NCBI GenBank assembly: GCA_005791575.1
Contig: SXWA01000007.1
Location: 1 to 47,372, forward strand
Source of the DNA: Planctomycetaceae bacterium
GTDB taxonomy: Bacteria > Planctomycetota > Planctomycetia > Pirellulales > UBA1268
Direction of reading: 5' to 3'
DNA: 47,372 nucleotides
The position numbers and the translations under genes were made by a program. The notes beneath the pieces are model-generated. The model did no database searches. It saw only the letters and a list, made by a program, of their open reading frames with translations, and was not told the origin of the DNA. Of this stretch, positions 1,205-22,278 are shown piece after piece. Positions within the stretch are counted from its first letter, which is position 1. The number at the start of each line of letters is the position of its first letter.

Positions 1205-1312
1205 ACCGCGGTCATCCGCGCACGAAACACCGCGGTCCCCCGCGCAAGAAATACCGCGGTCCCCCGCGCAAGAAATACCGCGGTCCCCCGCGCAAAAAAT
1301 ACCGCGGTCCCA
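1205..1312. repeat. 24-bp tandem repeat, about 4.4 copies
   Basis: Units at 1205-1228, 1229-1252, 1253-1276 and 1277-1300, plus a partial copy to about 1312. Each starts with the perfect palindrome ACCGCGGT followed by a C-rich stretch and an A-rich end. The first copy is the most diverged, the middle two are identical. The array fills the gap between the convergent ends of lutA and the CvpA-like gene, so it is probably in both 3' untranslated regions. No obvious intrinsic terminator is otherwise present here. Confidence 0.95.
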
Positions 1313-8664: not shown

Positions 8665-8705
8665 GGGGGGGTCGGGCGGATGCCGCCCGACCCCCCCGTT
8701 TTTTT
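8665..8705 (+). terminator. Strong intrinsic terminator of the YTV gene
   Basis: A perfect 15-bp stem (8665-8679 with 8683-8697), three-base ATG loop, then G and seven T residues at 8699-8705. This is the strongest terminator in the window and implies a highly transcribed gene upstream. Confidence 0.96.
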
Positions 8706-20539: not shown

Positions 20540-20640
20540 GTCGGCTGTGTGTCTGACTGCCTGTCGGCTGTGTGTCTGACTGCCTGTCGGCTGTGTGTCT
20601 GACTGCCTGTCGGCGGCGCATCTGAATGCCTGTCGGCGGC
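20540..20640. repeat. 23-bp tandem repeat, about 4.4 copies
   Basis: Units at 20540-20562, 20563-20585 and 20586-20608 are identical (starting GTCGGCTGTGTG), a fourth at 20609-20631 is diverged (GTCGGCGGCGCA), and a partial fifth follows. It begins 19 bases after the ino1 stop. Confidence 0.95.
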
Positions 20641-20681: not shown

Positions 20682-20710
20682 TTGACAGTTTTCGACGGCA
20701 TCCTTCACAA
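20682..20710 (+). promoter_or_regulatory. Candidate promoter for the lysine-rich gene
   Basis: A perfect sigma-70-type -35 hexamer TTGACA at 20682-20687 lies in a locally AT-richer stretch 150 bases before the lysine-rich ORF. The -10 is poor (TCACAA at 17-base spacing, 20705-20710), so only the -35 is persuasive. Confidence 0.35.
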
Positions 20711-20837
20711 CTCATCCACAAGCCCGTTCGCGGGCGTGTGTCGATCATGGTTGGAGACGTCGCCCGGTCCCTTCGAGAGAGTGCCCGAGGGATCGGTCGT
20801 GGTTGTGAGCGGGCGCTCGTTGCAAGGAGCCATAACG

Positions 20838-20900
20838 ATGGCCAAGAAGAAGAAGGCGGCCAAGAAGAAGGTCGCCAAGAAGAAGAAGGGCCACAAGTAG
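20838..20900 (+). CDS. Tiny lysine-rich basic protein (20 residues)
   Basis: The ORF encodes 20 residues, 12 of them lysine, in the pattern MAKKKKAAKKKVAKKKK, with no acidic residue. AAGGAG at 20824-20829 precedes the ATG by eight bases, and a strong intrinsic terminator follows at 21019-21062. A candidate -35 lies upstream, so it appears to be its own transcription unit. The composition resembles lysine-rich tails of histone H1-like bacterial proteins, so nucleic-acid or polyanion binding is plausible, but this is inference. The alternative is that the transcript is a small RNA and the ORF is incidental. Confidence 0.65.
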   Translation: MAKKKKAAKKKVAKKKKGHK

Positions 20901-21018
20901 TCCTTCTCCCGGCAGCCGCCGGGGGGAGCGAAGGCCCGCGGCGGGTGTTGAACCTGTTCGGACCACTCGCCCCTCCCTGGCAATCGCCGCCGGGACCAGC
21001 GAGCGACCAGACGAGAAA

Positions 21019-21062
21019 GGCCGGCCCGGGCCCTTGGGCGCCCGGGCCGGCCTGATTTTTTT
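21019..21062 (+). terminator. Strong intrinsic terminator after the lysine-rich gene
   Basis: Perfect 13-bp stem of GGCCGGCCCGGGC (21019-21031) with its complement (21040-21052), eight-base loop, then TGA and seven T residues (21056-21062). Confidence 0.93.
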
Positions 21063-21156
21063 GACCATCGCCGGGGCACAGCCGGCGGTGCGCGTCGGTC
21101 CTCCGCCACCGTCCAACCCCCGGCAGGGCAGGGCTGGGCTGGGTAGGATCGACTGC

Positions 21157-22278
21157 ATGGCTTCCACTTCGTTGTCGTCGGCCGCTGCTCCTTCATCTCC
21201 CTTCCCCGACCCGCAGGGGCGCTTCCTCCTGGCCACCTGTCAGGCCGGAGCCGAGGAGGCGCTCGCCTCGCGGCTCCTCTCCCTGCTCCCCGGTGCCGGT
21301 CGCGGCGCCTGGCGCCGCGGATTGGTCACCTTCCGCCGTCCCCCGGTGGCCGCGCCACCCGACGATCCGTCGTCGGGGTCCCTGGCCGGTGCCGTGTTCG
21401 CGCGGACGCTGGTTCACTGCCTCGGGCAGGTGCACGGCGCCGACGACGCAGCGCGGGCCGCCGCCCTCGTCGCCCTGTCGCCGGCGATCGCAGCGACCCG
21501 GCTCCACATCTGGCACCGCGATCACCGCGAAGCGGCCGGTGGGGATGGCAGCGCTCACGACACGTCGTCCGCCGCCCGGGCGGCGCTCGTCGCGGCGCTG
21601 CCCGGCATCGCTCCGGGTGCCACCGCCACCGGCGACCTCGTCCTCGACGTGGTGGTCGACGGTCCGGAGCGCTGGTGGGTGGGCTGGCACCGGGCGACGA
21701 CACCGTCGAGCCACTGGCCGGGCGGGATCCATCCGCAGCCGTTGCCGGCCGACAAGGTGTCGCGCGCCTGGCTCAAGCTCGACGAGGCACTTGCCGGGTT
21801 TGCACTCACCCCCACGCCGGGCGAGCGCGCCGTGGAACTCGGTGCGGCGCCGGGCGGCGCCAGCCAGCGCCTCCTCGAGGCCGGGCTCGACGTGGTGGGG
21901 ATCGATCCGGCGCTGATCGACCCGTGTGTCGCCACCCACCCACGGTTCACCCACTGGCGCAAGCGCGCCCGCGATGTGCGTCTCCGCGAGTTCCGCGGCT
22001 TCGACTGGATCGTGGCCGACATGAACATCGATCCGGTCAGCACCCTCGAAGCGATCGGTCGGGTCGTGACCGCCCCCGGCGTCCGTCCGCGCGGGATCAT
22101 CGCCACCCTCAAGCTGCCCGACTGGTCGCGTGCCGGTGGCGTCGACGGGTGGCTGGCGGCCGTCCGCGGCTGGGGCTACACGCCCCGGGTGCGGCAACTG
22201 TCGACGGGGGGCCGCGAGATCTGTCTCGTGGCACTCCGGTCGGGTCGGCGCGGGGCTGCACGACGACGTCGGGGATGA
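21157..22278 (+). CDS. RlmM-like FtsJ-type RNA 2'-O-methyltransferase
   Basis: A 373-residue protein. The N-terminal half resembles a THUMP-like RNA-binding region; the C-terminal half is a Rossmann methyltransferase with SRAWLKLDEAL, the SAM motif AVELGAAPGGASQRLLEAG, VVGIDPA and IVADMNIDP. This arrangement matches RlmM, which methylates the ribose of C2498 in 23S rRNA. The catalytic K-D-K-E set seems represented by the lysine in SRAWLKL, the aspartate in ADMN and the lysine in TLKLPDW. ATG 21157 is preferred because the upstream in-frame stretch passes through the preceding terminator. Convergent with birA, 17 bases apart. Confidence 0.8.
   Translation: MASTSLSSAAAPSSPFPDPQGRFLLATCQAGAEEALASRLLSLLPGAGRGAWRRGLVTFRRPPVAAPPDDPSSGSLAGAVFARTLVHCLGQVHGADDAARAAALVALSPAIAATRLHIWHRDHREAAGGDGSAHDTSSAARAALVAALPGIAPGATATGDLVLDVVVDGPERWWVGWHRATTPSSHWPGGIHPQPLPADKVSRAWLKLDEALAGFALTPTPGERAVELGAAPGGASQRLLEAGLDVVGIDPALIDPCVATHPRFTHWRKRARDVRLREFRGFDWIVADMNIDPVSTLEAIGRVVTAPGVRPRGIIATLKLPDWSRAGGVDGWLAAVRGWGYTPRVRQLSTGGREICLVALRSGRRGAARRRRG

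What the first reader, a model, noticed from the sequence alone, without database searches (positions are those of the whole stretch)
20682..21062. Independent gene for a 20-residue lysine-rich protein
The ORF has a good ribosome site, 60% lysine, no acidic residues, an isolated promoter-like TTGACA and one of the two strongest terminators in the window. Such tiny ORFs are routinely missed in annotation. A lysine-rich mini-protein could bind DNA, RNA or acidic wall polymers.
Basis: partly seen in the sequence, partly recalled or inferred. Interest (0 to 1): 0.6.

Follow-up and report, generated by a model that had tools for sequence, protein, structure and literature searches.

The report
Tiny histone-like gene with pseudoknot leader
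A 20-residue lysine-rich protein gene that annotation would miss is real: it is the shortest form of a histone-H1-like protein whose mRNA carries a conserved RNA pseudoknot in front of its start throughout one order of planctomycete bacteria, which suggests the cell controls how much of this probable DNA-coating protein it makes at the RNA level.

Summary
The ORF is real (20838-20900, MAKKKKAAKKKVAKKKKGHK, 12/20 Lys) and not chance. In the window's own family, 58 distinct loci share the layout: structured leader, AAGGAGCCA-type ribosome site, in-frame Lys-rich ORF (18-67 aa), variable 3' UTR, terminator; most also have the TTGACA promoter. Differences between loci encoding the identical peptide fall only on third codon positions. 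A covariance model of it finds the same leader in 14 other families of the order, in front of 68 Lys-rich, histone-H1-like ORFs (23-124 aa when complete), often beside the same neighbours. The window gene is therefore a miniature H1-like gene. The leader has no Rfam match. Most likely function: a nucleic-acid-coating polycation whose translation is gated by the pseudoknot, perhaps by the protein itself as in phage T4 gene 32; this is inferred, not shown. Separate puzzle: the terminator is letter-for-letter frozen across 12 genera (34/34 near-complete genomes), while terminators of the same gene in other families drift.

The parts
20682..20719 (+). Promoter-like element TTGACAGTTTTC-N5-CATCC-TTCACAAC (-35 TTGACA at 20682-20687; the -10 resembles TATAAT poorly)
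   Evidence: Same motif 120-197 nt upstream of the ATG in most loci of the family; unique in the window. Activity not tested.
20764..20796 (+). Pseudoknot helix P1: CCGGTCCCT (20764-20772) with AGGGATCGG (20788-20796)
   Evidence: Covariation: 10 of 12 pairs of helix 1 have changes on both sides, 93.1% of cells paired; order-wide 81.0% and 92.4% for its two halves
20779..20818 (+). Pseudoknot helix P2: GAGTGCCCG (20779-20787) with CGGGCGCTC (20810-20818), ending 5 nt before the SD
   Evidence: 94.5% of cells paired, 5 of 8 pairs with double changes in the family; 89.0% and 6 of 7 in other families although P2 was not part of the covariance model structure
20824..20837 (+). Ribosome site AAGGAG followed by the conserved GCCA(T), which could pair with ATGGC over the start codon
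   Evidence: GGAGCCA precedes the ATG in 53 of 55 family leaders and in most leaders of other families; hairpin -5.8 kcal/mol. Pairing not testable by covariation.
20838..20900 (+). ORF, 20 aa, MAKKKKAAKKKVAKKKKGHK, miniature H1-like protein
   Evidence: Conserved in frame in 58 family loci, third-position-only changes, orthologous layout in 68 loci of 14 other families
20901..21007 (+). 3' UTR, not conserved in sequence or length
   Evidence: Does not align between genera
21008..21061 (+). Frozen 3' element: CAGACGAGAAA plus terminator hairpin GGCCGGCCCGGGC-CCTTGGGC-GCCCGGGCCGGCC and T run
   Evidence: Hairpin core in 64/72 family genomes, 34/34 near-complete, 12 genera; 53-55 nt identical between genera; absent from other families sampled

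Best explanation
20682-21061 is one self-contained gene. A TTGACA promoter makes an mRNA of about 340 nt. Its leader folds into an H-type pseudoknot (P1 about 9 bp, P2 8-9 bp) that ends 5 nt before the ribosome site; the message encodes a 20-residue polycation and ends at a strong terminator. The protein is a miniature member of the H1-like Lys/Ala-rich proteins that sit behind the same leader across the order. Most likely it coats nucleic acid through charge, and the pseudoknot gates its translation, most simply by autogenous feedback: excess protein binds the leader and blocks initiation. Shown by sequence comparison: the gene, the in-frame conservation, the pseudoknot, the order-wide link of leader to H1-like ORFs, the terminator fold. 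Inferred: promoter use, translation, nucleic-acid binding, feedback. My own split: real gene 0.95; short form of the H1-like family 0.9; pseudoknot gates translation 0.75; feedback by the protein 0.45.
For: Gene. Pseudoknot: family leaders 93.7% of cells paired, 15/20 pairs with double changes, slid controls 34-54%; other families 88.8%, 18/19, slid controls 37-51%; found in 120 of 121 leaders, score 28 or more in 118 of 121 against 60 of 605 shuffles. H1-like link: 68 loci in 14 other families with the same leader and ATGGC start run into Lys-rich ORFs, often with an INO1-like or aminotransferase gene upstream as in the window. Position directly before the ribosome site, normally one credible target per genome and no conserved unpaired core fit a protein-binding or initiation-gating leader. 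Precedent: T4 gp32 represses its own translation through a pseudoknot in its leader (PMC3014915).
Against: No expression, binding or reporter data. The 20-aa peptide is too short and low in complexity for sequence homology; Pfam and NCBIfam do not place it. It lacks the S/T-P-K-K motifs of its long relatives. T4 gp32 is a folded protein, whereas a bare polycation may lack specificity for one pseudoknot. Most genomes are metagenome-assembled.
Confidence: 0.6

Rival explanations
1. Dual-function transcript: besides the peptide, the frozen 3' element (CAGACGAGAAA plus the terminator hairpin) is a regulatory RNA or a protein-binding site.
For: 53-55 nt identical between genera where the next longest shared stretches (38-45 nt) are elsewhere in the window; loop and 5' flank are frozen, not only the stem; the same gene's terminators in other families keep the fold but change sequence.
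Against: No target, partner or Rfam match found; single copy; confined to one family.
Confidence: 0.25
2. Metabolite riboswitch: the pseudoknot is an aptamer (as in SAM-II or preQ1-II) that controls the ribosome site.
For: H-type pseudoknot next to the ribosome site, as in several known riboswitches (PMC11625349, PMC7367207, listed).
Against: No Rfam match; no unpaired leader base conserved at 85% or more apart from the ribosome site and start; credible hits lie before one gene type only, never before a metabolic gene.
Confidence: 0.1
3. Leader peptide of an attenuator: Lys codons sense charged tRNA-Lys and the terminator controls the downstream rlmM-like methyltransferase gene.
For: 12 Lys codons before a terminator; rlmM-like gene downstream on the same strand in 54 of 54 family loci with enough sequence.
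Against: The unit occurs in other families without rlmM behind it and with ORFs up to 124 aa; the stretch between ORF and terminator is unconserved, so no antiterminator is kept; rlmM has no link to lysine.
Confidence: 0.06
4. A small basic ribosomal protein (like bL37, bS22 or Thx) with autogenous control.
For: Size and charge; structured leader; the family's downstream gene resembles an rRNA methyltransferase.
Against: Length varies from 18 to 124 aa with repeats and S/T-P-K-K motifs, unlike a ribosomal protein that fills a fixed site; not in a ribosomal protein operon.
Confidence: 0.05

Closest known systems
Histone H1-like bacterial proteins (chlamydial Hc2, Pseudomonas AlgP)
   Same: Lys/Ala-rich, repetitive, no folded domain expected; length varies by repeat number, as reported for Hc2 (PMC2848022).
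   Different: Hc2 is reported as 165-237 aa; here 18-124 aa. Pfam HC2 is only sub-threshold for the 65-aa form (E 0.031) and absent for the 20-aa form. AlgP is linked to polyphosphate granules (PMC9239181, abstract only).
Pseudoknot leader of phage T4/T2 gene 32
   Same: H-type pseudoknot in the leader of a gene for a nucleic-acid-binding protein; T4 gp32 represses its own translation by binding it (PMC3014915).
   Different: T4 pseudoknot lies 67 nt upstream and works with an A+U-rich run; here it ends 5 nt before the ribosome site in the window. Protein binding is untested here.
Pseudoknot leaders of ribosomal protein genes (rpsO/S15)
   Same: Leader structure at the ribosome site of a gene for a basic RNA-binding protein (own knowledge; rpsO paper PMC8470358 listed).
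   Different: Not a ribosomal protein as far as sequence shows; no sequence relation tested.

Membership tests
Histone H1-like proteins (Hc2/AlgP type) | Lys/Ala-rich low-complexity sequence with repeats | tested here: met
   60% Lys in the window ORF; repeats in long family forms
Histone H1-like proteins (Hc2/AlgP type) | S/T-P-K-K DNA-binding motifs | tested here: not met
   Absent in the window's 20-mer; present in most relatives of other families. So: works like, and related by locus to, H1-like proteins; not filed as an Hc2 member.
Histone H1-like proteins (Hc2/AlgP type) | Match to Pfam HC2 above its cut-off | tested here: not met
   65-aa form 14.8 bits against cut-off 40; none for the 20-mer or for five long relatives
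Histone H1-like proteins (Hc2/AlgP type) | Binds and condenses DNA | not testable with these tools
   Needs a bench assay
Order-wide pseudoknot-led H1-like gene (described here) | P1/P2 pseudoknot, AAGGAGCCA-type ribosome site, ATGGC start, Lys-rich ORF | tested here: met
   Window leader scores 79.8 bits with R2 (E 4.7e-18); layout
Autogenous pseudoknot operator (T4 gene 32 type) | H-type pseudoknot upstream of the ribosome site | tested here: met
Autogenous pseudoknot operator (T4 gene 32 type) | Encoded protein binds it and represses translation | not testable with these tools
   Needs a reporter and a binding assay
Metabolite riboswitch | Known Rfam class | tested here: not met
   No match to the leader
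Metabolite riboswitch | Near-invariant unpaired aptamer core | tested here: not met
   Only the ribosome site and start are conserved outside helices
Attenuator leader peptide | Terminator with competing antiterminator before a related biosynthetic gene | tested here: not met
   Sequence between ORF and terminator not conserved; rlmM is not a lysine gene and is not found behind the unit in the other families' loci
Small basic ribosomal proteins (bL37, bS22, Thx) | Fixed length and sequence | tested here: not met
   18-124 aa, repeats
Small basic ribosomal proteins (bL37, bS22, Thx) | Presence in the ribosome | not testable with these tools
   Needs ribosome proteomics

The most novel reading that the evidence does not exclude
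A new class of RNA pseudoknot gives order-wide autogenous translational control to a bacterial H1-like chromatin protein; in this family the protein is only an 18-20-residue polycation that still works on the nucleoid, and its mRNA has a frozen 3' hairpin with a second function.
Probability: 0.25. Interest if true: 0.8.

Novelty: new variant of a known kind. Interest (0 to 1): 0.62.

Why it matters
Lys-rich H1-like proteins are hard to annotate, and here even 20-residue forms can be found by their RNA leader instead of their sequence. If the pseudoknot is an autogenous switch, it would be a bacterial chromatin protein controlled through its own mRNA, directly testable with a reporter. The order also offers a natural length series (18-124 aa) for asking how small a nucleoid polycation can be, and a frozen terminator that ordinary termination does not explain.

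Tried and rejected
Metabolite riboswitch: disfavoured (no Rfam hit, no conserved unpaired core, one gene type). Anti-SD switch between the P1 5' strand and the ribosome site: hardly more complementarity than shuffled strands, mean z about -0.25. tRNA/tmRNA: none in the window. Lysine attenuator of rlmM: the unit occurs without rlmM in other families. Dispersed repeat: terminator is single-copy. Leader outside the order: no convincing hit in a phylum-wide sample (hits at E 0.003-0.02 not followed up). Longer H1-like paralogue in the window's own genome: none by a KKKxxKKK codon pattern (genome 74.5% complete); the protein-level search was uninformative, as it missed even the known short copies. 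Length history: the long forms need 2 changes on an rlmM tree whose one apparent short exception is a copy cut by Ns, so direction of change is not settled. Simple single-strand folding of the window leader does not single out the pseudoknot (z -1.3; the program cannot model pseudoknots); the evidence is covariation. Literature: none of the held papers listed by these searches appears to describe a pseudoknot leader for an H1-like gene or this gene in planctomycetes.

Full report
Observation. The ORF at 20838-20900 encodes MAKKKKAAKKKVAKKKKGHK, with 12 lysines and no acidic residue, and has AAGGAG at 20824-20829. TTGACA lies at 20682-20687 and a 14-pair terminator at 21018-21053; with 8665-8697 it is one of the two strongest stems with a real T run in the scanned window.

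Is it a gene? A search of relatives with 20720-21065 matched 36 of 39 genomes, although in families outside its own the matches cover only the AAG-rich part. In 58 distinct loci of the own family the layout repeats: ribosome site, Lys-rich ORF, terminator (two of the 58 have lost the true start to a contig end or Ns). Most ORFs are 18-27 aa; two genera have about 44-67 aa. All length changes are whole codons, stops switch between TAG, TGA and TAA, and among 17 loci encoding exactly MAKKKKKAAKKVAKKKKGHG the pairwise differences by codon position are 0, 0 and 233. That is selection on the protein. The promoter context TTCTCTTGACAGTTTTC-N5-ATCC-TTCACAACt recurs 120-197 nt upstream of the ATG in most loci.

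The leader holds P1 (20764-20772 with 20788-20796), whose loop contains GAGTGCCCG (20779-20787), complementary to CGGGCGCTC (20810-20818) just before the ribosome site. On 53 distinct family leaders, 93.7% of cells pair and 15 of 20 pairs show changes on both sides; sliding the partners by 1-3 columns drops pairing to 34-54%. Examples of P2 are GAGTGCCC/GGGCACTC, GAACACCC/GGGTGTTC and GAGCATCC/GGATGCTC.

Beyond the family. A covariance model of the leader with only P1 as structure (R1) gave weak but full-length hits in other families of the order, and these preceded Lys-rich ORFs with S/T-P-K-K motifs. A broader model (R2) hit 138 of 397 genomes of the order at E 0.01 or better and gave no convincing hit outside the order in a phylum-wide sample. 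I fetched the other-family hits. In 68 loci from 14 other families the leader runs straight into a Lys-rich ORF, 23-124 aa where complete (one, 16 aa, is cut by its contig end). Fetched hits without such an ORF were weak, E 4e-4 or higher. On 66 of these leaders 88.8% of cells pair and 18 of 19 pairs change on both sides, against 37-51% paired for slid controls; P2, which was not in the model's structure, gives 89.0% and 6 of 7 pairs. A search for any such pseudoknot finds one in 120 of 121 leaders; 118 score 28 or more, against 60 of 605 shuffles. An INO1-like gene, or the aminotransferase gene that lies beyond it in the window, sits upstream in many of these loci. Rfam has no match to the leader.

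Identity. The window gene is therefore the short form of an order-wide gene for H1-like polycations. Sequence alone could not show this, since Pfam and NCBIfam are silent or sub-threshold; leader, start context, neighbours and layout do. By a KKKxxKKK codon pattern it is the only such gene in the genome as held, which is 74.5% complete.

Mechanism. Shown by sequence comparison: gene, pseudoknot, usually one credible target per genome, terminator. Inferred: the protein coats nucleic acid, and the pseudoknot gates initiation. Feedback is the simplest reading, with T4 gp32 as precedent, a nucleic-acid-binding protein that represses its own translation by binding a pseudoknot in its leader (PMC3014915). 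No unpaired leader base is conserved at 85% or more apart from the ribosome site and the start, which speaks against a metabolite pocket. GCCAT after GGAG can pair with ATGGC over the start codon, but both sides are almost invariant, so covariation cannot test it. An anti-SD switch is not supported.

The frozen terminator. In this family the hairpin core GGCCGGCCCGGGCNCTTGGGCGCCCGGGCCGGCC is found in 64 of 72 genomes and 34 of 34 near-complete ones, across 12 genera; one genome has one mismatch and one shows it on two contigs. It is absent from the other families sampled, and in the collection of 84,980 species it occurs in 61 stretches, nearly all labelled planctomycete. It is the longest exact match between the window and syntenic contigs of distant genera: 53-55 nt against 38-45 nt for the next best in three genomes, and 38 against 22 in the most distant. 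The 3' UTR before it does not align. In other families most loci also have a strong hairpin downstream, often AGGCCGG...CCGGCCT with a T run, but with drifting sequence. Termination alone explains the fold, not the letters. I leave this unexplained and rate a second function (3'-derived RNA or binding site) at about 25%.

Limits. All evidence is comparative; most genomes are metagenome-assembled and unnamed in the search tool; the shuffles and slid controls do not fully correct for relatedness; the feedback step is a hypothesis.

Noticed in passing
20540-20637: 4.3 copies of a 23-bp tandem repeat GTCGGCTGTGTGTCTGACTGCCT between the INO1-like gene and the promoter.
   Followed up: no
21157-22278: RlmM-like FtsJ-fold rRNA methyltransferase gene (Pfam FtsJ; NCBIfam RlmM E 1.4e-18 but below its cut-off) follows the unit on the same strand in 54 of 54 family loci with enough sequence, but was not found behind it in the other families' loci.
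   Followed up: partly
8665-8697: The other very strong terminator-like hairpin of the window (15 pairs, 14 G-C, TTTTTTT tail).
   Followed up: no
L183:1028-1214: Two matches to the Rfam sRNA family Acido-Lenti-1 (RF01687) a few hundred bases from an H1-like gene in a related genome.
   Followed up: no
L019 (minus strand), directly after the terminator: The terminator tail CCCGGCCTGATTTTTG is repeated head to tail several times in one genome (G006).
   Followed up: no
window 1230-1295: Three copies, 24 bp apart, of the hairpin CGCGGGGGACCGCG on the minus strand.
   Followed up: no
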